Notes under the pieces: generated by a model
Told to the model about the DNA's origin: nothing
Database searches by the model: none
What the model saw: the letters and a program-made list of their open reading frames with translations, nothing else
Made by a program: the position numbers and the translations under genes
In this document: positions 19,976 to 49,741 of the stretch, piece after piece
Layout: each line of letters opens with the position of its first letter
How positions within the stretch are numbered: position 1 is the stretch's first letter
Assembly: GCA_023653785.1 (NCBI GenBank)
Contig: JAMKCH010035963.1
Location: forward strand, 36,961-100,960
Source of the DNA: Ophioderma brevispina
Lineage: Eukaryota > Echinodermata > Ophiuroidea > Amphilepidida > Ophiodermatidae
Direction of reading: 5' to 3'
Length of the DNA stretch: 64,000 nt

Positions 19976-20018
19976 GTACTTTTAGGGTTCGGTTTTTTCT
20001 GGGCACCTGTCCTGTAGT
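19317..20018. mobile_element. TIR element beginning TACAGGGTGTCCCAG (~700 bp)
   Basis: The left end, TACAGGGTGTCCCAGAAAAA then CGGAACCCTAAAA, is matched inverted at 19975-20018 (TTTTAGGGTTCGG, TTTTTTCTGGG) over nearly 50 bp. TA at both edges and the CAGGGTGTCCCA start suggest a Tc1/mariner-like non-autonomous element. No transposase frame is visible. A second left end lies at 17604 in the duplicated copy. Confidence 0.7.
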
Positions 20019-22260
20019 ATAACTGATACACAATTGGGGGAAAATACTTCTGCAATGATTTGAATTGTTGGTGAGCTAGTTTTGAGACAATTAACTAATG
20101 GTACGCCCTTATAATTGTCGTGTTTCACCCGAAGTTAGATTCCCCTCCTTTTTGCCATGCTAGTTTAAAACACATTTCACAGCTCAATTTCACTGTCATT
20201 ATCTGCAAAATGAGCAGACTTTAAAATGATTGAAATTTACTATGTACATATCATTAAATTTAAAATTTAAAAAAAGAAAAAACCTAAAAAATTAAAATTT
20301 TGGAAAATTTTGAACTGGATATATTGAAAGTGTAGTAAACTTTTCCAATTCCAAGTATGGAATAACTCAGTTCACTTCCCCTTTAGCCCCCAAAATACCT
20401 ATATTTGGCTATCGCTTAGGTCAAGGTACTATTAATATCCCCTGCTACTCACACATATATATGCGAAAGATTTACAGAATGGTGCTGTCTTCCATGTTAT
20501 CAAAACTCCATAGCCACAAACTTTCAAGTAATTCACCTTAATTGCTACTTTTAGAAATGATCCAGATGATTTTAGCTTCACTTTGTAAAACCAACTTAAG
20601 GCATGGCAACGTGATATGTTTCAATCCTTTCATTCATTTTGACAAAGTGCAGTAATTAATATTCATATCTCCCCAAAACTTTAATTATGCATTGCGTGTG
20701 CTTATACTCCCCAGATTCTGAGGATTGTCTCCAACTCTCTGTAACATGAACACAACAGGTTCATGCAGCAGTTTTGGAGTATTTTATCACTCTCTGTCAA
20801 CTACAAGTTGAAAAATCCATCTGTGACCAAGGTTGACACTCTTTTTAGTTAAAGACCATTTTGAGTAGTGGCCACAATGTAAATACAAGATCAAAAATTG
20901 TGTTATTTCAATGATGAACTTTCCATACTTCGCTACATATTACTATTCAAATGCAATACTAAGTTTAATGAAAAGGTCAGAAATTGGATTTCCAAAAAGC
21001 TTGTTTTGAAGACTTGTTTACATTAACTTCTGTGCCATAAAAGACTTTAAAAGCCCCTCAACTCATACGTTGTATTTATATTGTCATGCACTTCCTTTAA
21101 ATTGTTCATTAAATTCTGATCAGAAAACCACATGACATTGATTTGTATCAATTATGATTATTAGTTTAGAATGCAAACTACATGAGGTGAAAATCTCAAT
21201 TTTGACATTTACCGTAAAGAGCCAAATTTGGTTCGTGTGCATCCACATTTTTAAAACATTTTCTCTACTTGGAAAACTCCCGAGTTAACATGACAAGGGT
21301 GGTAAGTGGCTTATGTGTGACCCATCCTCAAACCAGAGTCTTGTAGGCTTAGCGACCACAACTCTAATTGACATGGGATTCGTAATCAATTTGTTAGTTA
21401 GATATTGGGCCCAAACCACCGTAAACTTAAATTAATTCAGCCAAAAGGTTCACAGATTCATGTTCACAAAATTCAAACTACCGTCAACTTGCAATTTCAA
21501 ACTCAATCGTCATGCCAAAGTTCAATGCAGTATATCACAAACAATGCACCCAAACCACCGTGAAAACTTCAAGCTACACTACAGTGGATTTCGTCATATA
21601 TAAACCTGCATATCGCACTCTCTGCGCCATCAAAAAATCAGCTTTTTTGCATGGTTGTATTGGAAATGGTTGTAAGTAAAGCACGGGGCGGGTAGTAGGT
21701 TGGTGCAGGCGGTAGGTAGAAAGATCCCTGGAAGTGGTTAAGCTTAACACACGCGTTTTTGGGCAAAAATAACAATTTTGAGTGCATTGTGTACCAATAG
21801 AAGGGATCCCAATGTTTAGTAGAACACAAAACATTGTAAATGCATCTTCAAGACTGCTTTTAATATGCTTTTAGGGCCTTTGTTTTTTACAAGAGAAACA
21901 GTAATATAAGTGGTATATACCAACACTAACAATTTAGAGACAAAATGGGCATTTGCAATTTGGAAAAAAAAAAAATGACTGATTGGCTTGAATCACCAAA
22001 TGTCACTGGTTTCATGTTTTAACAAAAAAATCCAAAAATTCAAACAGTCATTCAAAAGACATGATCATGGCATGCCCTTTGTAAACATATTTTCTAGCTT
22101 GCAGTAATTACAATCAAACATTAGAGTTCAACTTGGATAAGATGGTGATCAGTGGTGTGGTTGTCCATTCCTCAAAATCCATAGTACAACCTCTCTAGGA
22201 ACAGAAGGGTTTTCTTAGTTTTAGTTGGGTGGCAACGTTGAATGAGTTAAATGCACTCAC
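20019..22260. other. Long spacer, no gene recognised
   Basis: AT-rich sequence with no convincing exon. The phrase CAAACCACCGT occurs at 21413 and 21549, too short to define a repeat. Overlapping frames at 21574-21834 show no family motif. Confidence 0.4.
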
Positions 22261-22388
22261 AACGCAGCGACTCCAGATATATATCGGTAGACGTCGACAC
22301 CATTCCAACTCCATACGTAAACATTGTACCATGGGGGAAGTGGGATGAGTCTTGGTACTCGATGAAGAGAGGACTTCCTCCAGCATCC
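22261..22388 (-). CDS. Candidate orphan exon, unknown protein
   Basis: A 128-bp stretch is flanked by a pyrimidine-rich acceptor (TTTTAACTAG) and a strong donor (GTGAGTGC). One frame reads DAGGSPLFIEYQDSSHFPHG and then TMFTYGVGMVSTSTDIYLE, which looks like an extracellular beta-sheet module rather than random sequence. All three frames happen to be open. The frame chosen here would need two bases from an upstream exon and so does not join directly to exon G, which ends in phase 0. I do not recognise the domain. It may belong to a separate host gene. Confidence 0.35.
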
Positions 22389-24517: not shown

Positions 24518-24606
24518 CTTATCAGGATCCACAATCATAAACATGTCATCTATCTTTTCTCTGAAGAGCATAGGAATCCCCAGTAGTGCGGCTCTGGCTA
24601 CAGCCT
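24518..24606 (-). CDS. Exon G of the SAMD3-like gene (last recognised)
   Basis: The acceptor is TTTCTTTGCAG and the donor is GTATGTG. The exon encodes AVARAALLGIPMLFREKIDDMFMIVDPDK and ends in phase 0. The LLGIP-hydrophobic-REK..D.MF motif fits the C-terminal half of the family, where several more segments are usual. No downstream exon carrying them was recognised, so the gene may be 3'-truncated or continue outside the recognisable sequence. Confidence 0.72.
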
Positions 24607-27600
24607 CTGCAAAGAAATAAGAAATTGAAAGAGTAAAGAATGTTCGAAAATCACATAATATAGAGCTCAACATCTCTTACCTTTAGGGTTCTTGTCAACT
24701 CAGGACAACACCTCCCCGTTAAAGCAATAACCATTAATTTAAATTCTATACAAGACTTACACAGTGCATAAAATGACCCTAAGAACTAGTTTCTTTAATG
24801 ACTGATTTAGGTGACATTGGTCTAACAATTGGTTAGCAATGACATCATACGATATTGTGTACAAGTATGTATACACATGACCTATTTAGAGAATAAAGGT
24901 ATGATTTTGGGAACCGGTACTCTCTTTACATATTTTCAGTGGAAGAATGAGGCCGGAGGCCGAGTTCTTCCACGCAAAAATAATGGTGTCGCCGGGTTCA
25001 ATTCGTCGTAAAGAGAGTACCGGTTCCCAAAATCATACCTTTATTCTCATTCTTAACAGCTTTATCATTTAAGGTCATCTTTAACCCAACTTTGCGATGC
25101 TTTACGGCTTAAATACAACAAGAAAGGACTGCCACCACCCAGTGACAACAATCGAACAACCCATTGAACGCAACAATCATATGCAACGAGACGCAACGTT
25201 GGCAGGCGCGAGAACGTAGCAAAACGCAGTATGACACGAGCGGTTCAACCTAAAAATAACATCAATACGCAGCGCGTACTACCTGGGTTCAATTAAACGA
25301 ATTGAACCCGGGCATCAGCCAATGGAATTGCTTACATTTTCACAGCTGTTTAAGAATAAATAATACATATACTATTATCTTGCCCAGTTTGAAGTTCAAT
25401 TGGAAATGGATTAAATAGTTGTTGTTCAGGTGGTATTGGATTAATATTGAAATGCAAATTGGCTCATTCATATTTATAACCTAACCAAAAAGCATAAAGT
25501 ACATGACAACATGTTCAATCACCCTGTCAAGTTCATCTGCTAACTAATTATATCCGGGAGCGGATACTCCGAGAGGTCATAACTCTGCCCAGCAACATGA
25601 CGTGCGTAACTCTATGCCCATTGCACACAGTGTCATGCGATGTGCAGTGAACCTAAAGATGCAATTTTCAGTTTGTTTTCACTGCTTCACCGCAATTTAG
25701 GGATTCCTTGGACCGCCCATGATTTGTTTTCTCCGCAATGAAGATACGTGACGTAGGTCTGCTTGTGGCTATAGTTGGCAGAGTGGATCATGAATTTTCT
25801 TCCTTATGTATGCCATCCACCAAGACAGGCAGATAGACAACCATCTATCTTCCATGATTACATAAGACTTTTCACAGCATGTTACATGTAATCAAAATTA
25901 ATATAAATTTTAGGTTATAGGCAAATCCCTTTATGACCAAAATATTGCAAAATGCCTTGTACATAATGGGTCAACCAGTGTATTTATGTTTAATAATGGC
26001 CTAATATTGATGCTGGTATGATGGGTTAAAGTAGCTTTTTCTTAACTCTCCCCACACCGTGGAAATTCAGGATATTCACGATTATCAAAACACATTCTAA
26101 TTAGAAAAGGTATTGTTTTTAGACCCAGCCGTTGTATCTACGCTCTGATAGAAATCACGGGCGCAATTATTATTTTCAGTAGAACAACGAGCCCAGAGGG
26201 GAGTTGTTCTAACGCAAAAATAATGATTTGCCCATGTTTCTATCAGAAATAAATACAACAGCTAGGTCTAAAAACATTACCTTTATTCTCATTCTTTAAC
26301 AGCTCCATTACTTGTCACGTTTTTCCTTCTTTTATAGCAAATAATTATGTACTTTAATGCATAAATTACAGCGCTCTCACCTATCAAAATATTCGAGTAA
26401 TCCGCACGTATTTTCTGGCGTGTAAAGCTTGAATAAAGCAATGATGACGCGTCCTCGCACAGTAGCGACGCAAACGGCTTTCATAGCAACAGGTATGCGT
26501 ACGCGCCGTTTTCTCTGTACCGGGGTAGAAATACAGTCAGAATCAATGAAATTGCGAGAATCCTCATAGCTGTTTAAGAATGTGAAATACTTACTTTCCT
26601 TCTCCTCTTCATCTCTTTCTCCTGGAATCTTTCCAGCCATCACCTTGAAGCAAGTAGGTGGTTTCTTTAGCCCCATTACATAGTGGATAATTTTCTTTCC
26701 GTATTTCTTTAGGCCATCACAAAACTTGCTGTAGTAATTCCCTTGTCCCATCAAGCGATCCATCTCATCCATAAGCTGAAACATAAGGATATAAAGTCTT
26801 TTTCAATGCATAAGGAAGATGAATCATGCCACATCATCAGATCTATAATATTTCAATTGAAATTCTAACAAGTACAGAGTCCACATTTTGGTGTACTCAA
26901 CACTTAAATATTTCACCATAATTTTTCCAAAAATCTACATTTACTGTTGTGGACATCATGGTAGATATGCTAGCTGACTCTTCATCTCAACACTGCCAGA
27001 AGATTTCCCCAAAAGATAGTGGAGCATGTGACTGAATTAATATTTGATGTAACAGAATAGATAACTGTTAAACTATCTCCAATCTCAATGCATCTTTTCC
27101 TGTAAGAATCAATTGGCAGTGTTTCCAAGCTTTTACACTTTTAGGCTATTCAACAGACATGGAAATGCATATGTACTAGTGGGGGAGGGGGCACAAAAAC
27201 AATAGCGTTTGCGGACAAACCAACCCGACTGTGTTCCAAAATGATTGTATGCATGTTGGACGGAATTTTTAGAGGCTAATTGCTGGTATTTTTGATCTAG
27301 GACAGATGATTTGTGATCATTTCTCATATATATAAAATAGATATTGTGCCCTCCTAATAAAATAAATGAAATTCGAAAATAGTCCTGTGTGATTCCGTTT
27401 CATCGCCAAAACCTTTCATGTCGGACCGAATCGTAGAAATAGAGCTCTCGATGAAATGTTATGTTCATTGCTATTCTATCAAAATTAAAAAGGAAAAAAA
27501 TTCTTTTACCCACTGAATATAATGAAGCTACAAATCACTGACTCCAAAGAAGTACCAAATGTTAATTTAAAACTACCGCTCTTCCTAGAACGCCCTCTGG

Positions 27601-30600
27601 AAATGGAAACATGTTGGACGGAATTAAGCATGTCGGACGGAATGGAAATGTTGACATTTTACGCGACTTTGCTATTGTGTATTTATTTTTGCACCATCTA
27701 GTAACTCGGGATAAGACGTATTAGTATTGGCATATACAGGGTGTCCCAAAAAAACTAACCAAAAGTAATTGGCTGTAACTCATTCTATAAATGTTGTAGA
27801 ATGTTAAATTTGGAATCAAATTGAAGCTGAAACTTGGGAGACTTATTGATATACCATATTTTGAAGTTTGTCTCAACTGAAAGATTTCATTTCTCTTGTT
27901 TCATTTTATAACATTTTCCTATTTCACAGAAATCAGCATGCCAATCAATGGTCAAATCAAGATCATGCCAAAATGGTGCAACTACATACCTGTTTCGTAA
28001 TGGCCATTTATTCTGCATATAATCAATGCATCACCTGTTCATTTTCTTCCTTATATGGCATTGTATGTTCCATATATGGAAGATAATGATCAGGCGATGC
28101 ATTGATTACAAGCAGAATAAATGGCCGTATAAGCCATTACTCGAAACAGGAGCGACTATACTTTGAACTGAGGCATTCTGTTACTGCAGTGCAAAGAGAA
28201 CTTTCTGACGTTGGTTGTGACAGTTTTTCTGTCTGGATGATTCCTCAAACCATAACAGCATGCAAGTTCTCTTTGCAGTACAGTAACGTAACAGAATGCC
28301 GAAGTTGAAAGCATAGCTGAACCATTTCCGCACAATCTTGATCTGATTGTTGATTTAACATTTTACAACAAAATGAGTTACAGCCAATTACTTTTGGTTA
28401 GTTTTTTGGGGGGACATCCTGTATCAGAACTGGTAAAATAATTGCACATTTATTTGTGTGTGTGTTACGCAACAAAATCCGTAAAAATGCCGTCCAACAT
28501 GTTGCATTTTTTTTTTTTAAATGTCTAATTATTTCTAAAAAAACAAAAAACAAAAACATTGTTGATATATTTTTCTCTTTGAAACCTAAAATTATTCCTA
28601 TTTCTTTATTAGTCAAAGAATATTTACAAAAAAAATTCCAATTACCAGTCAAAGAGACAAAGAAATGAATCAAGTCTGCCAAATTAAAAACTTCGCACCA
28701 CAAAATTGAAAAAATGTCGAAAAGTTGTTTTTCAGCCGTTTCCAGGTAAAATCTTACAGAGGAAATTGATCTTTGTTTTTTCTGGGTACAACTTGATTGT
28801 TCTTAATGATGCATGTTTAATGCAACTTGAAATTGCCCAAAAGAAAACTTTAAGAGCACTCGTTTGACTGTTTAAACCATGTCAAACGGAACACATGTTG
28901 GACGGAAAAAAAAAATCTTACCCCTTTTACTTTAATAAAAGAAATAAAGCCAGACTTTGAAAAAAATAAATTTAAAAAACCTCCCCGGCCTACTTTTTCA
29001 CTAAATTCATGGATACTTGATAGAAATATTTTATTTGAAATTTTGTTTTTTATAGAAAAAACTTTTTAAAATTTTTTACCATGTCAAACATAATTTTTCT
29101 TTGTTTTCTTTTCTATTTCTCTGGGCATTTAATATTTGAATACATTTGGGGGTTATAGACATGCTTATATTATTCATGTAAAGTGTCAACTTTATATCCA
29201 AAGGTATGCTAATTAAATTAATCTTTGAATGTTTTTCATGTAATAATGGTTATTTGTTGGTTGAAATTCCATCCAACATGGTCAGAAATTTGAGTTACCT
29301 GTAAAATTATTGCATCAAAACAGGTGTAACAACAATTTTATATTTGTTTACTTTTATTTTGTGACAGACAACATTCAAATCATTCAAAATGACCTAAACA
29401 CAATCTATAAAGAAATTTGTCAAATTTTACTATTTTGGTGACACATTTTCAAAACAGCCACTCCTTAGAGGGAATCATCTGGCATTCCTTAGTTTTGCAG
29501 GGGGAAGTTACTCATAAAATAAAAATTTAGGTGGAAATTCACTGACTTTACATGATTTTGTGGAGGAAGAAAAAAAAAATACCCCAAATCCAGGTTGGTT
29601 GAACCCTTCAAACAGCATTTTAAGTATAGGTGTGTCACCTACCTGGGTTTCATCAAATAGCCATGGGTAAAAATCTTGTACTGTTGTAACCAGGGCATGT
29701 TCTTCAACAATCTTCTCTCTTCTGTCAGATAGTGTTGCATTCATAGATATTCCTACACTTTTAATATCAGGATACTGCCTCTTCTTCTCATTCTGCATCC
29801 ACTTCCTGTGCTTTGCAATTGTGCCTTCATCCTCTCCTTCAGGCATTTTGGGCAGGTAATTTTCAAGTCCCCATTGAGGGGGTGCAGAACCTGTGGTAGA
29901 GGTATGTGGCTGAGTGGTGTTGCTACTTTTTCTTTTCAGCTTGCGAAAACTAGCTTGCAGCTCTTCGGACTCTGAACCGCGCATATTTTGAAATTTTGTT
30001 GTCAGTCTGTTCTTCCACAGCACCTACATTAATTGCAATAATAAATAAAAAATCACATCGATCGCCAACATTAGCTACCCTTCACTGATTTGGACATTAT
30101 GGATTTAAGTTAAAAATTGTCAGTTTGGGGTTTGAACAGATTTACAAATCTCATTTCATATCTAGCTAGTTGTGTTTGCCATCTCAGTAGAAGTTATACT
30201 GGTACAGTGAAAATGGTTTCTTTTCCTACATGACATGTATATGCATTAAGTAATTTTGGTAGCCATATTTTGGATACTTGTCTCTTCTCTCTTTCAATAA
30301 TAGTATATAAAACCATCTGTGCCATTTCAGAAGGGGCATATTACCAGAGGGGAGTAGGGGGGCTGGTGCCTTGACTGACATCAAATAATCATTTATATAC
30401 GGCCAATTTCGCACTGTCATCCAGGGGAAACGGGATACTTTCTTTTTCGGCAGTTTCACCTGCAAAAAATAAGGGAACAACCCAAAAGATCGACGAGTCC
30501 TATAAACAAGTTTCATTAGAAGGCTGACCCCCTCCCCCCGTGCCTCTAACGTAATAAGGAAATATCGAAATTTCCTAGTCGTATTCAGGTTATACCTTAC

Positions 30601-33600
30601 AAGTTGGGTGGGAGAAATGGGATGCCCCTATATAAGCATAGTCACATGATTGATCCTAAGCACTAGGCATGATAATAATAATATTAATAATAAAAATAAT
30701 AACACAAACATTTGTAATTCTAAACAGGGTGATGATACAGTGTGTAGCTTTTATTTGCAGAAGTTCTCTACATGGTTTGGTTTTATCCAGAGGGTTATTG
30801 AGTCAATCCCACAATGCACCAGTTTTGGGAAATTTCACCTCAATAGGGTCATGTGATCACATAAAAATCCTATTCTTAACACATAAAAACCCTGACTTTC
30901 ATGCTCATTTTAACCCACAAAGCATTAGTACTTAGGGAATTTTTTGCATGATTATGAAATGTCTTGTGGTTTTTAAACTTTTGGAACACTTTTTATCCCA
31001 AAGTACTGACATGTGTTTTGTACAGTATGGTATAGGCACATTGCTATGCATTATGGGATTGGTTCAAAACACCCTCTGGGTTTTATCTGAGACCAATTCA
31101 TAATGGCATTATTTTAATTTTCTAATGATTTGAAAATGGTAATTCGAAAAGTAAAGCTAAGCAAAAGGAACAGTCCAAATTCAGCAAACAAATCTAGCAT
31201 AATAGCTTTTCCACCCTAAAAGATTAGCAGGTAATGTACCTCCTTGCATTTTATAGTCTCCCCCCCCCCTTTTGTCTTCTTTACAGACAAAAAAGTATCG
31301 TCATCACATCGAACATTTTTTGTAGTAAATGTTTGGCAACACCAATTTCTTTTGTGTTTTTGCCCAATTCTTGATCGCATTTTTAGTTGTAAATGACCGA
31401 CAGAGGTTATTAAAGGACACCAAAGAAAATTAAGGAATGTCAAGATCGTTGACAGTTTTAACAACAATGTCCTGATAATCCTGAATAAAATTTAAAAAAA
31501 TCCTCCCTGCAGATAATATTAAGAGAACGATGAAGATGGTGATGATGAATGATCTTGATTTGACATTTTATTACTAAAATGTTTTAATCATCAATGATTA
31601 TGTTTATTATCATTTCCTCTCGTAACCGACCGATGCTTTTTCACTAACGTAATCGACATTTTGACCCCCTCCCTCCCCCAATGAAACTTATGTTTATAGG
31701 ACGTCATCAATCTTTTGGGTTGTTCCCTAATTCTAATGAATATTAATGGAAAAATAATATGGATTAGGCGACAAAAAAAACCCCGTTTTACTGGCGGGCA
31801 GACCTTTCAAGTAGGGTCGGTCGGTCGGGTGAATTTTTTCTTTTTTAAATTTTTTTTTCCATGGAGGTTAAAATTGGCCTAAAATCGCCCCAAAACCTGA
31901 AAAAATCGGTTGAAAATATGAAATTTTTTTACAAATTTTCGAATTTGCAAAACGCAAAAATCTGGGTCGGTCGGGCCTGTAAAACAGTTTTTTTTTTCCG
32001 TCGCCTTACCACAGAAAAATGTGGCATTTTATGAACTGGAAATTTAAGTAATGTACCTTTACATCACCATACTGCATCCCACGTTTGCCCAAAGCAGGGT
32101 ATCTGCGGAATAGCTGGTCTATAATCACATTGTACTGGTTTGGTTTTGGGTAGCTGTGTTGAACAAACAAAAGAAATAAAACTTTTTTACAAAATAGAGA
32201 TCAAGATCTTGGCATATTTCTGTATCTTTTGGGTTTTCGTCTTGTGGCAGAAAAATTATACGCACAGTTCTCCAGATCTACACTCACTCGCACACACGTT
32301 ATTGCAGACCACATACCCCACTGATTGACCATGACAAAGAAACAGCCCACAGAAGCTGGACTGAACTGCCTTTATTTGTCATTCCAGTTGTTGGGATATT
32401 GGGTGGGGATAATGCACTTTATTGAATCATTCATTTCCACCACACAGTGTACAAATGCACATTTTCCCGGAACCTCAAATTGGTGCAAGGCGAGGGAACT
32501 ACTGCTGCGCCAACAACCTCAGCTGCTCCCCCAAAAAGTTGGCAATGATTACTGTGAAATGGGCCCAATTTAAGAACACTTAATTCTTCCCATTTTGATA
32601 ATTTTTGACTGCACATTACTTTCATTTTACCCTTTTCTCCAAGCATTATTGAAAATATAGTCAATTTCAAGGTGTATACTTAAGCGGAATTCACACATTT
32701 GGTGGTGATCATAACTACTTCTGTTTCAGGGGTGTAACAGGGGTCACTTGTCAGATGTGGCAAATTCCTGGTTTTGAGGTAGATTTTCCCGGTTGGAGGT
32801 GGTTTTGAGGCAGTTTTGAGCAGATTTTCCTGGTTGGAGGGGGAAACTTCCAGGTGAGCAGCAAAAAAGGCTGATTTAGCACGACTTTCAAGCTATTTCT
32901 TTTCGGTCAAAGCTCATGGGATGGCAACCTGCCACCTCCCGCCCCACATGTTACGCTATATATACTGTCCTGTTTTGCCTCGAAAAACAGGAAAAACTTT
33001 TGAACGAGACAACAAAATAGACATAAGGTGAAAATTCCAGTTGATAAAAATCATGTTTGTTGCCCATGGAAAATTTCCTAACTTGAATGTAGGGAATGTG
33101 TTCATGCAAAAATATCACACTGTCAAAAAATTGAGGGCATCCTCCCTACCAGATGTGTGAATTTCCCTTTGAAATACTACAAATTAAAGCATATGAGCAA
33201 CAAGTAAAATGGATGAAAGAGATGTCTTGGAAACAAACTCTTGAAGTGTACATTTCTGTGTATCACAACGTTCAACAATTTATTACGCAGCTGGTGGTGG
33301 AATGATTTTTTAAAGTGGAGGGGCCAAAAATGTGTGAACCCATTTTTTAAGCTTCCATTTGCTTAGCTGTAAATCACCATCAGCGAAGCAAGCGCACAAT
33401 TTTGGGTGCTCTCTGGAGGCATTTTAAGACTCTTTTGACACTCTTGGAATGTTTTTTCCTACAAAAATTACTGTCAGTACATGGCCAAATGCCTCCCACC
33501 TTCAAAAAATTGTCGGTATAAAAGTGGACCGCCAGACTATCACCCCCACCCTCACTTCAAAAAAAGTGGAGACCTTTAACCACCCATCCTGCTCTGTTCC

Positions 33601-35426
33601 ACCACCACTGCTTTATGGAAATCAGTCTCAAGTCAAGTTAAGGTCTTACTATGCCATGTATTTGGTGGTCACATCCTTATAGATTTCCTCCAGCAAAATT
33701 CCCCTCTCTGGCACATTCAGATCAGTTGCACCTGCTTCAAGTTTCATAGCAATTGCTGGTGGGAAAGTGGGCAATTTCCATCCAATGTGCCAAATCTGTG
33801 ACATTGTTGACCTACAGGTAAAAAAAAATAAATAATTCAGTAAAATCAACTGGTAATACTGGAAGACAAAAGGTACACAATACAATGAACTCTTAAGGGG
33901 TTTGGCAGGAGATCTGTTTATGCGCAAGCAGTTTTGAGCTTTGCGAGCGTTCAATTTAGCACCCACGGCCCACGGCAAAAGAAAGAACTTGCATTTTGAG
34001 GTGCGAAGGTTTCACGCGCAGATACCGTGGATCTTTTTGCGTTTGGTTTGTGTTGATTTACGCGAAGAATTAAAACAAAAACAAATCGCGTCAATCTCGC
34101 ATCCTCTACACCCGCATTCAGTCACACACTATTTTGTAGGCGATCCAAAAGTCAAATTTTTATTTTCCCCATAGACTTGCGTGGTTTAAAAAGCGACAAC
34201 ATACCTTTTTTTGTTTTGGCTATAGCTCCAAAAAAAAGTCGGTGACCCTTTTTCACTTCAGATTCTTGATCGGTACCGTTTTTAATACCATATATGTGAA
34301 TTCTGGAAAATGTCAAACCCCTTAAATTTTACCATTTGAAGTATGAATATACTTCAGACTTCAATTGTGAAAATGAAACACCAAACAGGGCAGTTATTTT
34401 CAGATTTTTTTAGGTACATGTAGGCTGTAGAGAACCATGTACCTAGATGTTTCTATTTCCTTATTTTTTAACTGGACCAAACTTGGGTCAAACAGATGTC
34501 CTGGGCTGGGCTGTGAGTCATTAATTCTGAAACAAATTTCAGGCTATGCGCATATAAACCCAGAAGTGTGCGACAAACACTTGAAAATGGAAATTCATGC
34601 GCAATAAAAGAGACGTGCGAGTAATTTGTTTCAGAAATTATGACAGACTAAATAAACAATCCAGCATTTCACATGTATTGCATAATGAATTAATGATGGT
34701 TGTATAATGATGTCTGGGTCCAGACAGCTAGTGTCAAACCTTTTGTCGAGTCCAAGGTGGTGTGCAAACATATTTTCCAGTGAGAAATAGCAAAGAAACA
34801 AAAAGTCTAGGTTAATTATTTGTTGATTGGTAGATTGAGAAGGAAACTAAAATCAATGCAGAGCACAACTCAGCTATCTAGAGAAATTAAAGAGGTAATT
34901 AAGCTGACTTCTATAGCAAAACTTGATCGGCCCAATGTATGCCTGTACTTACGGGTCATAATTGGTGGTAGAAACACATTTCGGATTCTCTTCATCCTGC
35001 TGAGCAGGTCCACCACCTTGAATGTCATCATGATCCACAATCGCATTGTCATCTCCATCCCCTTCCTGAGTGTTGTTGGTTTCAAGAATGCTGTGCACTT
35101 CTGGATCTGGAACGGCTACAGCGTTGTCCTTATCTTGTTGTTGCAATGCAGCACGTCCTCCTCCTCCTACTTCAATCGTGACTGGCAGCACTTTCACATC
35201 CATATTAAGTTTTAGCTTGGTACCTCCTTTGACTAGTTCATATTTTTCAACATCAACAAAGCACTCAAACTCCTCATCCCATTCTTGTATGAAAGCAGCC
35301 TCTGGTTCTAAGTTGAATACTTTTGTTGCACTGCTTTCGAGTTCCTCTCTAGTAGCGCCCAGTCTGTTGTTGTTTTCAAGTGAAATTCTAGCATTGTGGC
35401 CATTGTAGGCCACAAGAAATTTATGT
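24518..35426 (-). CDS. Intact multi-exon gene, SAMD3-like/PB1-like family protein (5' and 3' ends not found)
   Basis: Six exons on the minus strand join at GT-AG sites: 35426-34953, 33811-33650, 32153-32057, 30023-29643, 26775-26595 and 24606-24518. The phases match at all five junctions, giving 461 codons without a stop. Numbering from the first visible residue (HKFLVAYNGHNARISL), residues 1-75 look like a ubiquitin/PB1-type beta-grasp. Residues about 85-157 are a Gly/Gln/Asp-rich linker, and 160-245 carry the WHIGWKLPTFPP and YPKPNQYNVIIDQLFRRYP motifs. Residues 245-262 (VLWKNRLTTKFQNMR) are a basic segment, 345-371 end in FYPWLFDETQ, and 432-461 contain LLGIPMLFREKIDDMF. The order resembles metazoan proteins labelled 'SAM domain-containing protein 3-like', which are multicopy in fish and invertebrates; no SAM domain is visible. 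Function is unknown. A DNA-element accessory protein or a domesticated derivative is my inference. No initiating Met exon or terminal exon was recognised. Confidence 0.75.
24891..25355 (+). mobile_element. Hairpin MITE family A, copy 2
   Basis: Same layout as 22800-23312, with a cleaner hairpin: AGAATAAAGGTATGATTTTG (24892) against CAAAATCATACCTTTATTCT (25028). The inner loop has GAGGCCGGAGGCCGAG and the outer pair is ATTCTTAACAGCTTT / AGCTGTTTAAGAAT. It lies in the intron between exons F and G. Confidence 0.8.
25356..26100. other. Intronic spacer
   Basis: AT-rich intron sequence between two MITEs. No repeat or coding pattern recognised. Confidence 0.4.
26104..26580 (+). mobile_element. Hairpin MITE, diverged relative of family A
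   Basis: Same architecture as the two family A copies with different text. An inverted pair AGGTATTGTTTTTAGACC / GGTCTAAAAACATTACCT flanks a loop with AACGAGCCCAGAGGGGAGTT. An outer pair ATTCTTTAACAGCT (26292) / AGCTGTTTAAGAAT (26568) follows. The right end lies about 14 bp from the donor of exon F. Confidence 0.7.
26595..26775 (-). CDS. Exon F of the SAMD3-like gene
   Basis: The acceptor is TTATGTTTCAG and the donor is GTAAGTATT. The exon encodes LMDEMDRLMGQGNYYSKFCD and continues to a Lys/Glu-rich end (GERDEEEKE), leaving one base of the next codon. A MITE begins about 14 bp beyond the donor (see 26104-26580). Without splicing, the frame runs about 70 further codons through the MITE before a stop at 26377. 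Confidence 0.78.
27251..29281. mobile_element. Word array: ACATGTTGGACGGAAT
   Basis: Variants of ACATGTYGGACGGAAT occur at 27251, 27417, 27609, 27629 and 28893 in the forward orientation and at 28489 and 29265 in reverse. Related CATGTCAAACGGAA copies lie at 28879 and 29081. The text between is AT-rich and unrelated. A separate MITE (27737-28425) is nested inside. Terminal repeats were not found, so these limits are only the first and last words. Confidence 0.6.
27737..28425. mobile_element. TIR element beginning TACAGGGTGTCCCAA, nested palindromes (~690 bp)
   Basis: Terminal inverted repeats of about 50 bp: TACAGGGTGTCCCAAAAAAA then CTAACCAAAAGTAATTGG at the left, mirrored at 28375-28425. 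TA lies at both edges. Inside are further inverted pairs (GCATTCTGTTACTGCAGT / AACGTAACAGAATGCC; GTAATGGCCATTTATTCTGC / GAATAAATGGCCGTATAAGC), so most of the element can fold. It resembles 19317-20018 only at the extreme ends. No transposase. Confidence 0.8.
29643..30023 (-). CDS. Exon E of the SAMD3-like gene
   Basis: The acceptor ends AATGTAG and the donor is GTAGGT. It has 127 whole codons and begins VLWKNRLTTKFQNMR, a basic W...KF.N.R motif that directly continues exon C. A Ser/Thr-rich linker follows, then PPQWGLENYLPKMPEGED, a Lys-rich helix, and FYPWLFDETQ at the end. Reading past the donor gives a different, probably untranslated, tail of about 44 residues. Confidence 0.8.
30024..31763. 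other. Intronic spacer between exons C and E
   Basis: It contains an AAT-type microsatellite (30668-30705) and short C tracts. An acceptor-like TTTTTTGCAG at 30460-30470 precedes an open stretch on the minus strand, but no donor follows and skipping it keeps the reading frame, so it is not called as an exon. Confidence 0.4.
31767..32005 (-). mobile_element. PIF/Harbinger-like MITE (GGCGAC ends), copy 1
   Basis: Ends are GGCGACAAAAAAAACCCCG and its mirror TTTTTTTTTCCGTCGCC, flanked by TTA on both sides. Subterminal GGTCGGTCGG blocks lie inside each end. The 3-bp TWA target duplication and GGC ends suit PIF/Harbinger. It is the opposite orientation of 49421-49738 and lies in the intron between exons C and E. 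Confidence 0.8.
32057..32153 (-). CDS. Exon C of the SAMD3-like gene
   Basis: The acceptor is TTCAACACAG and the donor is GTACAT. This 97-bp exon completes a Tyr codon and encodes YPKPNQYNVIIDQLFRRYP followed by ALGKRGMQYGDVK, ending in phase 0. It was too short to be found as an open reading frame and rests on motif and phase agreement with exons B and E. Confidence 0.78.
32682..33170. mobile_element. TIR element, ~490 bp
   Basis: The left end AAGCGGAATTCACACATTTG pairs with the reverse complement of CAGATGTGTGAATTTCCCTT at 33150-33170 with a few mismatches. Inside, GGTTTTGAGG / TTTTCC.GGTTGGAGG is repeated directly at about 32770-32840. It lies in the intron between exons B and C. Confidence 0.55.
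33650..33811 (-). CDS. Exon B of the SAMD3-like gene
   Basis: The acceptor ends CTGTAG and the donor is GTAAGA. The first G completes the Pro codon left by exon A. The exon encodes STMSQIWHIGWKLPTFPP and then a helical-looking stretch ending in EEIYKDVTTKYMA, the end of a motif conserved in the family before the YP..NQY segment. It ends with two bases of a Tyr codon. Confidence 0.8.
34511..34648. mobile_element. Small MITE (~140 bp)
   Basis: Inverted ends TCATTAATTCTGAAACAAAT and GTAATTTGTTTCAGAAATTA enclose about 85 bp containing ATGCGCATATAAACC. It lies in the intron between exons A and B. Confidence 0.65.
34953..35426 (-). CDS. Exon A of the SAMD3-like gene
   Basis: The acceptor is a pyrimidine-rich stretch ending TTTCCAG at 35427-35432 and the donor is GTAAGT at 34952-34947. 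The exon encodes HKFLVAYNGHNARISL, then TREELESSATKVFNLE and FIQEWDEEFECFVDVEKYELV, a beta-grasp-like pattern. A run of glycines and an acidic Gln/Asp-rich linker follow. It starts with the last base of a split codon, so at least one upstream coding exon must exist. None was recognised between here and 41 kb. Confidence 0.8.
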
Positions 35427-36957
35427 CTGGAAATTGGGAAATGTCAGATCAAAATGCATACATGAATAATTGCATAATTTGTGTATAGATCATGTATTCA
35501 CTGACTACATTTCTGTGAATCTGCAACTCTCTCTTTTGATTGAGGGGATTCATGACCAACTTGCATGTGTGTAAATACCAGAATCGCTTAAACTTGCCTC
35601 TGTTGTTTTTTAAAATCTGAGACCCTGTGTCTTTTAATACAGAAAACCCACATTATTAGATTTTAAATGTATTGAGACTGATGCACATATGTATATATTT
35701 TGTACATGAATATGTAATATTTTCCTATCTCCAAATTGTACACCAGTAAAGTTACATTAAAACCCAAACAAAAATTTTAAAAATTTCATCAGGTTGTCCA
35801 AAACACATGACAAAAGTTTGGCTTGCTGCTGTCTTTACCTGTATTTTCATTATTAATATTAAAAATCATCTTTACAATATTATTAAAATAATACTAAATA
35901 TTATTATCATTATTATTATTACCGTAACCACTCGGGTTTAAGCCCACCTTCAGGTATAAGCCCACCCCCAATTTTTAAAGAAAATACAGGAGCTAGCATA
36001 CACTCTGGTATAAGCCCAGGTGGTCATTTTAGCATTCAGGAAACAATGTGGCAGTAATTACACTTAAACAAAATCACATTTTAAAACTTGATATTCTATA
36101 GAGCCATCAATGTAGGGCCCAATACATTGGGATGGCTTGTTTGCTAGTATAATTACTTTGAGGAATGTGATGGGAAAATTGAACTTTTATTTTTAATTTC
36201 TGCTACAACTGAAGTGAGTAATATGCTCTTGAAACGATAATGTAATTTTGTATCTGATATACCCCAGGAGAACCTGATTTAATGCACAGTTGGCAAAAAT
36301 AATTATTGTTTTCCTTTCTTGACAAATGTCCCCCCTTAATCCAAGTTCCCATAGGGCTAGTGGCATTATTCTAGTTCAATGCGCAGTCCAATACGTATGT
36401 TTTAATTTGCTTTTTATCCCATCTCTCTAAGATCAATCGTTTTTGAGAAATCCTTGCTACAAGGATGACATGTCCTTAAAATCCACTTTCGAGATATCGG
36501 CAATTTAGTCTAGAAACACTGTTTTTTAAGTGTTAGTATATTTTAGAAATGCTATTTTACTTTTATTATCAATTAAATAATAAGTGCTTCAATTTTCACA
36601 AATAATTGTGGAAACTAGAGATCAAAAGCTTATTTACTTTTTGAGATATGATTTTTTTAAGTGGAAAAAATTAAATATCGCAGAGCTCTTGAGAAAACAA
36701 AATACATAAGAAATATGATTAGAGATTTCAGTTTGCGAAGTTGCATTTTCGATCATAACTTTTGAACGGAAGCTCTGATTGTCGTCAAACAAAAAGCAAT
36801 AGAAAGGTAATTTCTTCCTCAGTTTCAATATGTAGTTTTTATTTTTAGCCTTCTGAAGGGGTAATTCCACCTTAAGGTTTCAAAACATAATGCCATTATG
36901 CCAAATGAATTTTTAGGGCACTTTTTTCACTAAAATATTTCAACATCAAACATTATG
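35427..36957. other. Spacer upstream of exon A
   Basis: A block at 35920-36030 repeats 'TATAAGCCCAC' (GGTTTAAGCCCACC, GGTATAAGCCCACCCC, GGTATAAGCCCAGG), typical of a dispersed element. The missing first exon of the SAMD3-like gene could lie here, but no ATG-bearing exon with a good donor was recognised. Confidence 0.4.
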
Positions 36958-39900
36958 CATATGGGCCAAAGCCAAAAATGGTCATCACCAAACCTAAAAA
37001 TCCAAGTCTGCTATTGAAGTAAATTACACCCATGGCTACAAAGGGTACTAACCAAAGCCTATGAAACCAAAATTTTTTTGCGATTACATGCATCGTTATT
37101 GAAATAAAGGCAACTAAAGATAAAAATGGCGCCCTCTTAGTGCGACGGGACGGAATTTGAAAAAATTGATATATCTTAATACTAAAAAGAGATAACAAAT
37201 TTCTGTTTTTTGCATTTTAATATTTCTTTGATCACACAATTCAAACATTAAAAAAAATTCTCACAAGTGTTTTTAAAAGTAGGAAAAAAACGGAATAAAA
37301 GGGCAAAATTCCGTCCCGTCGCATTTTGAGGCGATTTTTTTTCATTTTCGAGGGCTAAAAATTATTCAAATTGAATGAAACTTTCCAAACTATCAAATAT
37401 TGTTGCAACTGTCATGTTAACAAACAATAAAATCATTTCCAATATTTCTCCTTAAAACAATAGCAGTGTGTCTTTTTCATGACGGGACGGAATCAAGTGC
37501 GACGGGACGGAAATTTGCCTAATGAACATACAGAAAAATTGCGCTTGCTGCTATTTATGAAATTTTTTTTAGGTATCAAACATACCGGTATTCATGCCCC
37601 TTCTGTTTGTACTAAGCAATAAAATGCTTTGAAAACTTCATTTTGATAATAAAAAATTACCAGTACTATCATTTATAAGAAAATGATTAAAAACACATGC
37701 TTTAAATTCAGTATATTGTCTAATTCACATACATGTACCCAGCTTGAAATACTATCACATACCCTGAGGGAAGTTGCTTCTACCTTCAGCCTTCAGGGCA
37801 CTTTATAATAGCCCCTATCTAAAAATGGAATAGCCCATTTCACACTGATTTTGGGGGATAAGAAAGTCCCAAATGTTCACATGTGGGTGAATATCCACAA
37901 TGCTACATCCTTTATTATTTGTATTATTTTCATGACTTTTTCTAAACTAGTCTTGTTCTTTAACTTGTTTGTTAATAAATTCCCAAGTAACAAAGATTGT
38001 TATTTTAAATGTAGAAGTTGTAACTATGCAGAGATGTAAATTTTCTGGAAATTTCCTGATATCAGGAAATGGACTTCTCAAAATATCCGCACTTATTAAT
38101 TTTCAGCCCATTTTGGGCCCTTTTTACTCGATTTTTCAGGATTTCATCGTGCTACTTTCACTACTATGAGTTAGTTGCACTCATTTACATAGAATAAGAA
38201 CAATTTTGGGCAAAATGATTGTATGTTGATTGGTTTGTATTTTATCAGTGAAATACTGATCATTGAACTGCATTCAATTTTCTTTGGAGCAAAGTGCATG
38301 TAAAAATTGTAACTGAAAATACATTAACTCTTTGCATGCAGTTAAGACATGGTTTAAGATTCAACCTAGGTTTTACTGCCAAAAGTGTAAAAAAAGTGAA
38401 GGTGCTTTAACAATGAAACAAAACATGTTTTCTAGGTTAAATTTTGTGTAGAATCCAAATCTGAAGTAAAAAATGCAAAATGTTGGATGCGTTCAGAGAT
38501 ATCGCATTTTGGTGTATTGCGCAATGGCGAGTCCCATAGAAACCTATGGTAAATTGCTGGAAATTGCATCTTCCTTTGATAAAAAAAAAATTTCTCAAAT
38601 ATTTTGCAGTTTGACAAAAATTTAATACTAAATTCTTGTGGGAATATGTCTTGGGCATAATCGATTAACTTTTCAACAATGTCGCCCTTTTCGCTATTTT
38701 TTCGCGGGTTCTCGAAACACCGAATTTTAGGTAAAATTTGAATTCCGCAAATTGATAAAAAAAAATTTCTCAAATTTTAGACTGGGTGAACAAAATTTAA
38801 TACCAAAACTATGTAGGGACTTGCTTTGAGCATAATCGATTAAATTTTCAAACCTAGAGCTCTTCTAGTTTTCTTGTAGTTCCAATTTTATTGAACGACG
38901 ATATTTTTTTCACGCACTGAATCAAGGGGTAGGGGAAACATTTTTGTATTTTTGGAATTATTCCTATACTTGAAATGGAGCAAGTTTGGTATGAATTTGA
39001 AGCTTATTAAATTCTACATAAATGACAGGAAATCATCACTGTAGACCCTTCCTTTCAGAGAGTGATTGTGCAAAGAAAATTTTTGTTCAAAAGTGCTAAA
39101 TTTTGACATGTCGTTTTCAACGGGACATGTCAAAATTTGAATGCTTTCTTGTGTGCCAAATTATGAAGTAAGTTGATCAAAAATAAATACTTGAATTATA
39201 AGTTTTACCTTTGGTGATGAACTTCGACATTATAAAGGGTCACATATATGTATATTATGTAGACCCTGTAAGTATTCAAGTTGGTAGGTGAAAATTTTTG
39301 TCACCCGAAAAGTTCAATTTTCGGACAAAATCGGCCACCAATCAAGTATTTTATGATCATAATAATGAGTGTATGTACAGGGTTTTGATTAAAATTCATT
39401 TCGATGAACAATTACCCTAGAAATATGACATCTTAAAAAATTAAACATGCTCATATTTGCTCAGATATGAATTTTTTTCAACACTTGGCACTAAAACCTC
39501 AGTCAATCCTGAAAACCTGTCTTAAAGTGAACAAGCTAATTTCCTTTAAATAATTACATGAGATACATGGGGGGGGGCGGTCAGTTTTTTTGTAGTTTCG
39601 GGGGGGGAAAAAAAAAAAAAAAAATTGGAAACATGTGTGACTTTACAGTTACAAAACTGCTTATAGTGTTGTATTATTGTAGTTAGTGTATGCAACGATC
39701 CAAAACAATGCACGAAATGGATATTAATTATTTAAAATGGTTTAAGCAAAAAATGGTTTATGAAATATGGGAATGTTGCTTTAATTTGCCTTGGCTTTCA
39801 CTCAAAGTGGAGTAAAATGCAATTTTATATGAAAGGGATATTGCCAAATTAAATTAAGGCAGGAAATTGATTCCGTTCCGTCGCATTCCGTCCCATCCGC

Positions 39901-40730
39901 ACAGACATGTGTTATTTAAGAATTTTCGTAGCTGCTAGATTAGTAAAAGATCCAAATTTCTATGGATATTAATAGCATGATAGTTTGAACTTAATTTGAT
40001 GTTAAAAATTTCATGTACCGTCCTAACTTTTGATAAATTAAGCAAATGTTCATTTTTCCAATACCATGAACTGTAACTGAAAAGTGTTCCTGAATTTAGG
40101 CAAAAGGTCCTGAATCTGGAAAAGTCATGAATAGGAATTAAACTTAATTCAGACCTACATTTCAGACACTTGCCCCACCCAAATTCAATTGATTTGCACC
40201 CAGAACAAAATCAATAAATTAAAAGAGCCACTGATAAATCAACATAAAGTGCTGCCTATTGATATTACACAAACTTCAAGTATTGTAATCTACATTGTCC
40301 TTTGTTCCAAAAACCCAAATCTATAATCCTGTTGAGTCAGTTTATTGCTTTTCATACAATGCAGACTTTGGGTGGAATGGTCTGAATTGGTGTCGGAATT
40401 TTGGTCTGAATGTTTGTCTGAAATTGGAGGAGTCACAACTAGATAATGCCTCAGTGTTGTGAGTGACTAAAAGTCAGACGCATTTAGCCCAAATTCAGAC
40501 TTTTTCATTTCCAGTGACCTCCGTCCGTCGCGCCATTAATATAGTTACCATGGCAACATGTTTGACCTGAGTTTTCTTCATGTGTCCTGAATGTAGTCTG
40601 TGAGTTGCTTTTTTACTTAAAAGCACCTCAACCATTTACACATGCAACTGGTAAAGAGGTGCAAAAGAAAGGGCCATCATCAAATTCCGTCCCGTTGCAT
40701 ACGAGCTTATTTGGCTTGGCCCTAAATATG
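36958..40730. mobile_element. ~3.8-kb element with GCGACGGGACGGAAT word array
   Basis: GACGGGACGGAAT variants are forward at 37141, 37481 and 37498, reverse at 37308, and reverse at 39870, 39883, 40519 and 40684. Left copies are thus mostly forward and right copies all reverse. Imperfect ends CATATGGGCCAAAGCCAAAA and TTTGGCTTGGCCCTAAATAT fit a terminal inverted repeat with one small indel. No transposase frame is visible. Confidence 0.55.
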
Positions 40731-40731
40731 A

Positions 40732-41177
40732 TAATGTTTCTCTAATAGTTATGTGTAAAACTTTAAAAAAAATAATTTTGTGTGCTTTACTAAGAAACAA
40801 TATGGCTGTACAAAGATTGTTTGTCTCAGTCGCTTCGTTGGACTCGATGTGCACAAAATACCTCAATGGGAATGACTTTGTTGTTGACATCGGTTATGAT
40901 AACAAGGCAAGTGGTTGATAATCAGAGTTCACTAGGTTGGCATAGAATGGGACTACTGCATCTGTCACTTTCTACTTGAAATGCATGCTGTGATGCAAAT
41001 ATCTACTCTTCATGGGCTGGACAATAGAAATGGAAACCCTCCAACTATAAAACAGTCCTCAATAATGGCAAAGATATCATGATCTGATATATTCTTGAGT
41101 TATGGCTGATTCACAAGAGTAGGTAATTCCCTTCCCACTTGACACTTTCTGCTTTATATACCATATTCATATGCTCA
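40732..41177. other. Spacer 3' of the transposase relic
   Basis: AT-rich sequence between the word-array element and the decayed transposase. No coding pattern beyond the end of the relic. Confidence 0.4.
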
Positions 41178-43287
41178 TCAATCTGATTCGAAGTTCTTTG
41201 CCACATGCAGGAAGGGGTCAACAGATACATCAATGCCCATATGTATGTCTATTTTCCTCTTGAACAAGAAAGTTAGACTTGATTGATCTGTAGCAACTTG
41301 GCATAATTCATGGCGTTCTGCAAGTGTCCTTGAAATATTCTGGTGTTTTTTGTTGATTGGTAGATCTCCTTGAAGTAAATTTGTTAGCCTCGAACTCATA
41401 GTCCAGCATGGACGAGTGGACCAAAGTTTATCATCAATCTCTGGTAGTGTATAAGGTAATGAAACTTGGGTTTCATTGGGCTGTGTTGGAAATCAGCAAA
41501 ATAGCCTGGTCAAAAATTCTTCTATCAGATCTGCAAAGAAGTCTGCCAATTCAGGTGAATATTTTGGGCATGTGTGTATTCAACACATCAACACAATGCA
41601 AGGATACCTCCCAAGCTTTTCTCTATATGGCACATTTGAATCCAACCATTAATGGCAACAATCTCAGCAAGCACCATGACTGGGCCTGTGTCTGTTTTAC
41701 CTTGAAGGATGCCATATTTTCAGACATAGTGGAAGGCTTGCAAGACTTATCTGGACCACTATAGGGAAACTCAGTCACTTGCTTATTCAGGTATGGAAGA
41801 TCGAAGTACCCTGACCGTACACAATAACGTATCACACACTCAACCACCTCAGGGACTATCCCTTCCAACAAATCATGGGCCTGGTCACCAGGTAGGCCTT
41901 CAGTTACATGGTAGTACTGAAGCTCATTCAATGAACTGTTCCTTTTCAATCCATAAAATGAGGCAAGTGCTCCATTTTCTGCAACCATTTCTGCCTGCTG
42001 TGTATAGCCTGCTTTTGATCTGCATCTGATGAGTGGTGACATCCTGAAATGATTTTTAAGTGCAATCCTGGATAGGTTGCAATATCTACACAGGCGATCC
42101 ACTGTTGAAAAACTTTCCATAAAGCCACCAATTCCATGGGCCCCAAGATTGTCAGCTGGTATATAAGCTATTGTGCCATAGATTTTGTGCTCTACTCCAT
42201 CCTTGAATATACACATTCCCTCTTGTTCTAACTTCTTTACATCCTCTAGCAGGGGATGGAGTACATTATCTATGCCATACTTTTTGACATCAACAGATTT
42301 GCACAAGATAGCTAACTGTATGACATGCAATCTAGATCTGAACTTTGGATGCAAGTTGCCTAGTACGAAGTAGAACCCACTGATTTTGGTTTTCTTAGCC
42401 TTATTTGTTAAGGGGTTTCCCAACGTAAATTCATCATAATAGAGAATCAGCTGCAAATTCATATGATTTCTGGCAAAGATGGGATTTTTTTTGAAGAAGT
42501 GTGAATCACAGAAGTCTTCCAGAATATCTCCCGTTGTTTGATGTCCTTGATAAATTTCAGTAAATACATCATCATGTTGCAATAAGGCTTGCACTGTCTT
42601 TAGGATTGGTACATACTGCATGCTACTTGTGGTTTCCAGATCAGGATGCTGTAGTGCAATTTCAACTGGTTGAACATGTTGGGAAAGCTCACTAACATAC
42701 TTGTTAAGGGTCCTCTGGCTTTGGAAATAAGAAAAGGATTCCTCATATAGAGTCTCATTCATGCCTTCACTGAGACCATGTTGCTTTAAGTCATCCACAT
42801 CAGCACCATTATTCTGGAGACAATCTACAACTTTTGATGCTATTTCTTCCCTACACAATTTAATCATCTCTGCAACCTCCTCAGCAACATATTCACATGT
42901 TTTACCAGGTATCTTGAACTTCTCCCTTAAGGTAAGAAGGAATGAACTGACTTTTTTCTTAGGATCTATATTCTCTTCTTCTACTAGTACTTCTTGTTCT
43001 TCAACATCAACTTCCTCTCGTGCAACATCTTGATCTGCAACATCCAACTGCAATGCATCATTAATGCCCCTATCATAACAATGCTGATCCCAGAAGTCTT
43101 GATGCTTTGATTTAATGTGCAATTTGTATGACCTAATATTATGATATATCTTTTGACATCCACCAATGTTACAATGTATGTAAAAATCAGGTGATGCATG
43201 CCCATGACGGTAATGTTTGAGAAGTGAATGGAAGTTTTTTGTCAAATAGTTACATCTGCAACAAATAAAATCCATCATCAACATCAA
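41178..43287 (-). pseudogene. C2H2 zinc-finger / Tnp2-like DNA transposase, 3' part decayed
   Basis: An open frame of 554 codons (43287-41623) is followed by family-like sequence broken by stops and frameshifts down to about 41178. The N-terminus has two C2H2 fingers, C-x2-C-x12-H then C-x4-C with HIKSKH, followed by an acidic coiled stretch (VEEQEVLVEEENID). The core includes NLQLILYYDEFTLGNPL, KISGFYFVLGNLHPKFRS, the cysteine motif CRYCNLSR and LPGDQAHDLLEGIVPE. The H-D-L-x-EG motif resembles Tnp2/CACTA-type transposases; this is inference. After the first stop, pieces such as LIEEFLT and ISRTLAERHELCQ lie in shifting frames. It was probably once an active transposase and is now inactive or truncated. 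A splice-acceptor-like TTGCAG at 43256-43261 could mean an upstream exon, but the first finger needs residues encoded upstream of it, so the Met at 43287 is the simpler start. Confidence 0.7.
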
Positions 43288-44069
43288 ACAAGAATAGTAG
43301 GCGTATCAATGACATCCAGAAGAAAAGGTCTAATTAAAACACTGATTCTACTACAGCTGAAACTAGAATAGCACCTGTGCGTACAAGTAGCTGCAGTGAA
43401 AACCGTATTTACTTATACATTGTACAGTATGTGGTGGTTTATGGAAAGTACTCAGCTTCTGAGATAATAGGAAAAATTTCACTTTCGTTCTTCACAACTT
43501 TCTCCAAATCTGCTGTGGAGAAATAAACATTACACATTCATATACTGAGCTAGTCAGCTGGATATTCTATTTCCTTAACTGAGTTCTATATACACAGTAC
43601 AGGGTCTCAGTATTCTTGATGATTAAAACTAACAATTTTGATTCTGAAATGAGTAGCTTCACAATCTACTTGCACATGTAGACAAAGTGACAAGAGGCAA
43701 GGCTATATTATGCACAGTAATTTATTTTAATATTTTGGGAATGGTAGCTGAAATGCAGTCAGTCGTATACATGTAGTAATAGCTCTAAATCAATTGTGGA
43801 TGCAATATTCTTTCTGAAATCTCTTTACACTTTAAGGGGGGACACCATCTCCATACATGTTGATGTACACATGTCATACATGTACCTGTGTTAAAAAACA
43901 GAAAATGAACATGATTCACAATATTATTCAACAATAAATGCACTAAAAATGTTTGTGGTATTCATACAAAGTCATGCAACCTTTTAAAACTTATAGGGAC
44001 ACCATGATATTTCACATAAAATACACCCTCAATTTTCTGACTTTTCTGTTATTGGTGAATATGGCCCAT
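43288..44069. other. Region 5' of the transposase gene
   Basis: No upstream exon or recognisable promoter element was found. It contains imperfect repeats of ACATGTA text near 43850-43890 (CATACATGTTGATGTACACATGT). If the transposase unit had terminal inverted repeats, its left end should lie in or beyond this stretch, but none was recognised. Confidence 0.35.
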
Positions 44070-49420: not shown

Positions 49421-49738
49421 GGCGACGAAAATAAAAAAACGTTTTACGGGCCCGACCGACCCTCATTTTTCAGTTTTGCAGATTTTTTTTTTTTAGTTTT
49501 TCCAAAAATCATGTAAAATCAGCCTGTTTTTAGCCCAAATTTATCAATTTTGGCTATTTTTTAAAGGAAATTTGTAAAAATTTTTAATTTTTTCCTCTTG
49601 ATTTTTCAGATTTTGGGGCCATTTTAGGCCAATTTTGACCTCCAGAAAAGAAAAAAAAATTAAAAACTTTGAGCGACCGACCGACCCTACTCTTAAGGTC
49701 CTCTCGCCCGTAAAACAGGGTTTTCTTTTTTTGTCGCC
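49421..49738 (+). mobile_element. PIF/Harbinger-like MITE (GGCGAC ends), copy 2
   Basis: 318 bp with GGCGACGAAAATAAAAAAAC and TTTTTTTGTCGCC ends, flanked by TAA on both sides. It carries GACCGACC / CGACCGACCGACCC subterminal blocks and is the inverted relative of 31767-32005. Confidence 0.8.
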
Positions 49739-49741
49739 TAA

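What the first reader, a model, noticed from the sequence alone, without database searches (positions are those of the whole stretch)
24518..43287. Decayed zinc-finger transposase beside an intact same-strand partner gene
The sequence shows a C2H2/Tnp2-like transposase with a broken 3' half at 43.3-41.2 kb and, downstream on the same strand, a phase-perfect six-exon gene with a PB1-like start. Both belong to families that are multicopy in animal genomes. Inference: they were two genes of one DNA element, and the partner outlived the transposase, which would suggest host recruitment. The alternative is chance adjacency of an ordinary host gene and a dead transposon.
Basis: partly seen in the sequence, partly recalled or inferred. 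Interest (0 to 1): 0.8.

Follow-up and report, generated by a model that had tools for sequence, protein, structure and literature searches.

The report
Two-gene transposon with RAG1-like enzyme
This stretch of an animal genome holds a RAG1-like cut-and-paste enzyme gene with a second gene behind it, and the same pair recurs in the same order elsewhere in that genome, so they look like two genes of one mobile element, while the apparent damage to one of them looks like sequencing error.

Summary
Both genes are real. The inference that they are two genes of one element is supported within this genome. Genome-wide searches found two more contigs, C14662 and C54623, with a transposase and a colinear partner gene downstream on the same strand. 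Partner HMMs found partner exons in the same position at C24500, C9451 and C65742, weakly at C5043, and at C52493, a near-twin of C65742. All eight long transposase loci keep D, D, CxxC, HxxxH, E. The predicted fold is RAG1/Transib-like with a BAH-like end.

That the partner outlived a dead transposase is not supported. The broken 3' part needs 17 frameshifts but 2 stops at the middle penalty. Non-coding copies and two contigs that agree for 12 kb, then turn noisy, point to indel-rich stretches in this assembly. No convincing element ends were found. Eight of 11 contigs hit by genome-wide partner searches show no transposase hit. Other species were not tested.

The parts
41626..43305 (-). Transposase gene, open 5' two thirds (ATG at 43275): C2H2-like fingers, helical part, first part of the RAG1-like DDE domain with D, D and CxxC
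40840..41665 (-). Transposase 3' third (HxxxH, catalytic E, BAH-like domain), readable only across 17 frameshifts at the middle penalty; probably base-call errors
34953..35425 (-). Partner gene, first exon identified (ubiquitin-like/PB1-like start by model only); a tiny exon upstream is inferred
33650..33811 (-). Partner exon 2
32057..32153 (-). Partner exon 3
29643..30023 (-). Partner exon 4, found at other loci
26595..26775 (-). Partner exon 5
24518..24606 (-). Partner exon 6, ends on a splice donor
22114..22388 (-).
   Evidence: local score 72 against a best of 44 in 24 base shuffles
36959..40727 (.). Stretch bounded by inverted arms (25 nt, 72%) between the two genes, probably a separate non-autonomous element inserted there; no clear target duplication; includes motif ATTCCGTCCCGTCGCA

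Best explanation
The locus is one copy of a two-gene DNA transposon lineage of the EnSpm/CACTA-Mirage-Chapaev-Transib (CMCT) kind, in an animal whose closest named matches are echinoderms. Gene 1 is a cut-and-paste transposase: N-terminal C2H2-like fingers, a RAG1/Transib-like DDE core with a CCHH motif, and a C-terminal BAH-like domain. Gene 2, downstream on the same strand, is a multi-exon partner, probably with a ubiquitin-like start and a mostly helical body. Shown: homology, catalytic and CCHH residues, predicted fold, and recurrence of the pair in the same order and strand in this genome. Inferred: the transposase binds and cuts the element ends, and the partner is an accessory factor needed for or regulating transposition, as TNPA is for En/Spm or RAG2 for ProtoRAG (works like, not a member). 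A 3.8-kb inverted-repeat stretch probably later inserted between the genes. The 'decay' of the transposase is probably an assembly error stretch.
Against: No convincing ends: no CA..TG repeat pair with a duplication of 3 or more encloses both genes (0; shuffles 0.57), though repeat pairs without duplication exceed shuffles (40 against 19); scans at C14662 and C54623 had no control and no convincing pair. Of 11 contigs found by genome-wide partner searches 8 carry no transposase hit. In C6456 and C57413 the partner lies near the contig start, so the upstream part is missing. C10717 (lone exon 6, first 20 kb examined) and C23974 (one exon, 8 kb upstream examined) show none. C60536, C10749, C44161 and C53463 were not examined further. 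Close copies were seen for one lineage only (C65742/C52493), and those could be duplicate contigs; the DNA copy-number search did not complete. Co-occurrence was not tested in any other species.
Confidence: 0.7

Rival explanations
1. An ancient, host-owned gene pair: a RAG1-fold transposase and its partner were domesticated together and are kept as linked host genes, duplicated into a small diverged family.
For: Few copies scored in 2.51 Gb (lower bounds); five in-genome loci compared are 24-33% identical apart from one 98% pair; long open frames of 613-906 aa at C24500, C9451, C65742, C5043 and C52493; all catalytic residues kept; no element ends found.
Against: Catalytic and CCHH residues are complete at 8 of 8 loci, as in transposases; named relatives are scattered over echinoderms, a fish, a mosquito and a beetle; C65742 and C52493 share a stretch with an abrupt left border, though they may be duplicate contigs.
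Confidence: 0.15
2. One reading: the transposase really decayed and the partner survived as a host gene.
For: The 3' third of the transposase cannot be read in one frame, while six partner exons are open. One copy pair inside the noisy region (19763-20007 / 17847-17609) has an ordinary 5.2 mismatches per gap.
Against: Lesions fit about 1-2 substitutions per indel in simulation, the partner's last exon has similar lesions, and non-coding copies and a twin contig show the same kind of local noise.
Confidence: 0.1
3. Chance adjacency of an ordinary host gene and a transposon.
For: 8 of 11 partner-hit contigs have no transposase hit; an inverted-repeat stretch separates the two genes in the window.
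Confidence: 0.03

Closest known systems
[quoted passage not shown]). Maize Spm and S. mansoni SmTRC1 also make more than one protein (PMC1636069, passages seen).
   Different: Pfam Transposase_21 stays below its cut-off; C2H2-like N-terminus and BAH-like C-terminus; no CAC..GTG ends found. Spm and SmTRC1 make their proteins by alternative splicing of one unit, whereas the partner here looks like a separate multi-exon gene without a Pfam or PDB sequence match.
RAG1/RAG2 and ProtoRAG
   Different: About 12% identity; the partner shows no RAG2 likeness in the searches run; genes are head to tail, whereas ProtoRAG's are convergent (recalled).
Lytechinus variegatus LOC121426075 (P0050)
   Same: 37% over 454 aa with the partner; same start and same C-terminal domain.
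   Different: Function and neighbourhood unknown here.
Fish 'sterile alpha motif domain-containing protein 3-like' proteins
   Same: Recalled likeness of the exon 4 and exon 7 motifs; a lead only.
   Different: Not tested; no such protein came out of the searches.

Membership tests
CMCT transposases (EnSpm/CACTA-Mirage-Chapaev-Transib) | Three catalytic acids D, D, E | tested here: met
   D275, D369, E624 (P0001 numbering) in 8 of 8 long in-genome loci; for the window, E624 is read across frameshifts
CMCT transposases (EnSpm/CACTA-Mirage-Chapaev-Transib) | C(2)C and H(3-4)H between second D and last E | tested here: met
   C390-C393 and H600-H604 in 8 of 8 long loci; definition from PMC12730594
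CMCT transposases (EnSpm/CACTA-Mirage-Chapaev-Transib) | 5'-CA..TG-3' ends and 2-5 bp target duplication | tested here: inconclusive
   Both genes: 0 pairs with duplication >=3 (shuffles 0.57); transposase alone: 2 weak pairs (shuffles 0.4); pair counts without duplication exceed shuffles. CACT scan 74 pairs against 60.2 shuffled, 0 with 3-bp duplication against 1.15
EnSpm/CACTA proper | Pfam Transposase_21 (tnp2) above its cut-off | tested here: not met
   window ORF 13.5 bits against 28.6; best relative P0035 23.2 (best of 32)
RAG/ProtoRAG | RAG1-like core fold | tested here: met
RAG/ProtoRAG | RAG2-like second gene | tested here: not met
   P0050 has no Pfam match up to E 10 and no PDB sequence match up to E 10
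PB1-domain proteins | Pfam PB1 match | tested here: not met
   P0050 and the window exon show no PB1 match; secondary structure order b-b-a-b-b-b only, pLDDT 37.6

The most novel reading that the evidence does not exclude
A second deuterostome two-component recombinase analogous to RAG1/RAG2: a RAG1-fold transposase carrying its own BAH-like chromatin-reader domain, which has kept a dedicated ubiquitin-like partner gene beside it through deep divergence of its lineages.
Probability: 0.3. Interest if true: 0.75.

Novelty: new variant of a known kind. Interest (0 to 1): 0.55.

Why it matters
If right, animals harbour a low-copy two-gene transposon lineage with the RAG1 fold whose partner shows no Pfam match, hence no detected likeness to RAG2 or to the TET/JBP partners of fungal elements. 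That would give a natural comparison for how RAG-like transposases acquire partners. The case also warns that apparent pseudogenes in such assemblies may be base-call noise.

Tried and rejected
No relatives in phage records or viral contigs, and no Rfam match at the gathering threshold in the window. P0050 folded alone gave pLDDT 37.6; its fold search had no row at E<=1e-3. The transposase model had no viral fold match at E<=1e-3. No profile homology between P0050 and the transposase family. The two partner searches gave 0 and then 1 protein; all 3 protein searches are used. Literature: eight answered searches, seen as listings (titles and abstract starts of the rows shown) except PMC12730594 (passages, section 16) and PMC1636069 (passages); PMC3093488 is not held. 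No row shown names such a partner or a BAH-bearing transposase; this is not proof of absence. I first thought a conserved 5' ORF with a neutral 3' end might mean a recruited truncated transposase; I dropped this when the lesions proved indel-dominated. Of the two contigs C65742 and C52493 it is not known which one is noisy, and a divergent haplotype is not excluded. Their shared left border (11591/21229) shows no recognisable terminal repeat, and they could be duplicate contigs.

Full report
What the sequence shows. The transposase ORF (43305-41626, minus, ATG 43275) has 49 listed homologues; the named ones include Amphiura, Holothuria, Serrasalmus, Anopheles and Photinus. The four closest full-length ones fetched, P0001, P0002, P0003 and P0005, are 801-812 aa. 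The window copy aligns to P0001 from residue 1 to 812, with 0 frameshifts and 0 stops in the first 540 residues, and at the middle penalty 17 frameshifts and 2 stops in the rest. Across four relatives and four penalties the 3' part gave 10-27 frameshifts and 0-6 stops, and the 5' part 0-4 frameshifts and no stops.

The partner's six exons are right, and the gene matches Lytechinus LOC121426075. A first tblastn did not find the C-terminal exon. A frameshift-aware local alignment finds it at 22303-22129, score 72 against at most 44 in 24 base shuffles, behind an acceptor at 22389. It needs 4-5 one-base shifts, counting one at its start that could instead be a splice-phase issue.

Decay or error. 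Relative to how P0001 itself compares with P0002, P0003 and P0005 in its two parts, the window's 3' part keeps 0.90-0.94 of the expected identity (my arithmetic, middle penalty). In simulations with 18 indels on a piece of the window ORF (24 runs per setting), one to two substitutions per indel left 0.94-0.90 of the identity and eight left 0.69. Self-comparison of the window listed 14 copy pairs of at least 120 bp. Three pairs (18625-19952/16893-18203, 24886-25357/22800-23312, 18259-18629/16287-16683) differ by 1.0-1.8 mismatches per gap; the other 11 by 4.3-11. Overlapping copies are not independent, and one of those 11 (19763-20007/17847-17609, 5.2) lies in the same region, which speaks against uniform noise there. 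In the largest pair 61 of 81 gaps are one base. Contigs C65742 and C52493 agree almost perfectly for 12 kb (0-8 mismatches and 0-6 gaps per block of up to 1000 columns), then jump to 37-68 mismatches and 38-55 gaps per block over the last 7 kb. The assembly therefore very likely contains noisy stretches, and the transposase's 3' third and the partner's last exon show a similar signature. I take the decay as probably artefactual; raw reads would settle it.

Two genes, one unit. The window lies in G000:C35947, a genome of 2.51 Gb in 65,844 contigs. P0001 hits 13 contigs; P0012 adds C39646 and P0035 none. The window partner hits 6 contigs and P0050 adds 5. Counts are lower bounds. Three contigs are in both lists: the window's, C14662 and C54623. 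In all three the partner lies downstream on the same strand, with colinear exons. With HMMs built from the partner exons of these loci and P0050, the ORFs of both strands of the fetched stretches gave same-strand downstream hits at C24500, C9451 and C65742; at C5043 in the second round; and at C52493 (e7, 8.5e-10) only with an HMM containing its 98% identical relative C65742, the first-round HMM giving nothing better than 1.5 there, so it is not independent. So 8 of 8 long transposase loci show at least one partner-like exon, in 7 separate lineages, one of them weak. Of the 6 contigs with only short transposase pieces, one (C41863) was examined, over 8.75 kb downstream, and showed none on the right strand; the other five were not examined. 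First-round HMMs gave no hit at or below 1e-3 in 20 resampled sets of the eight stretches L032-L039; the second-round HMMs had no such control. Eight partner-hit contigs lack a transposase hit; the partner may also exist alone or in remnants.

Surroundings. Between the genes lies a stretch bounded by 25-nt inverted arms (36959-36983 and 40703-40727, 72%). The motif ATTCCGTCCCGTCGCA occurs 5 times in the window against 0.01 expected, all within 37.1-40.7 kb. At C14662 the aligned parts of the two genes are only about 0.6 kb apart, so I read the window's 3.8-kb stretch as a later insertion (inference). Ends of the two-gene unit were not found; the scans at C14662 and C54623 had no control.

Mechanism. 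By the known chemistry of the RAG1/Transib/CMCT group, the transposase should excise and insert the element; the BAH-like domain suggests chromatin binding. The partner's role as accessory factor rests on conserved linkage and on analogy with TNPA (PMC1636069, passages) and RAG2 (recalled). It is inference, not shown.

Noticed in passing
window 16287-19952: A tandem duplication (copies 16893-18203 and 18625-19952) whose copies differ by about as many gaps as mismatches (82 mismatches, 81 gaps); two 150-column stretches have 1 mismatch but 6-7 gaps.
   Followed up: yes
window 27252-29280: Array of motif ATTCCGTCCAACATG in partner intron 4, 7 matches against 0.14 expected; it shares ATTCCGTCC with the motif of the 37-40.7 kb stretch, perhaps subterminal repeats of related elements.
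   Followed up: partly
window 1371-1789 and 12774-13226, minus: ORF pieces that look to me like a LINE reverse transcriptase tail in two frames and a MULE-like transposase fragment (recalled likeness; Pfam gave nothing supporting it).
   Followed up: no
G000:C65742:11591-26292 and C52493:21229-35942: Near-identical stretch holding the transposase and part of the partner gene, with an abrupt left border; a recent second insertion or a duplicate contig.
   Followed up: partly
G000:C10717:1414-1503: Partner exon 6 alone, 97% identical to the window's, with no other partner exon or transposase hit in the first 20 kb of that contig.
   Followed up: partly
window 31764-31938 and 49568-49741: Inverted copies of a small repeat with TTAGGCGACAAAAAA ends, one of them in partner intron 3.
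   Followed up: no
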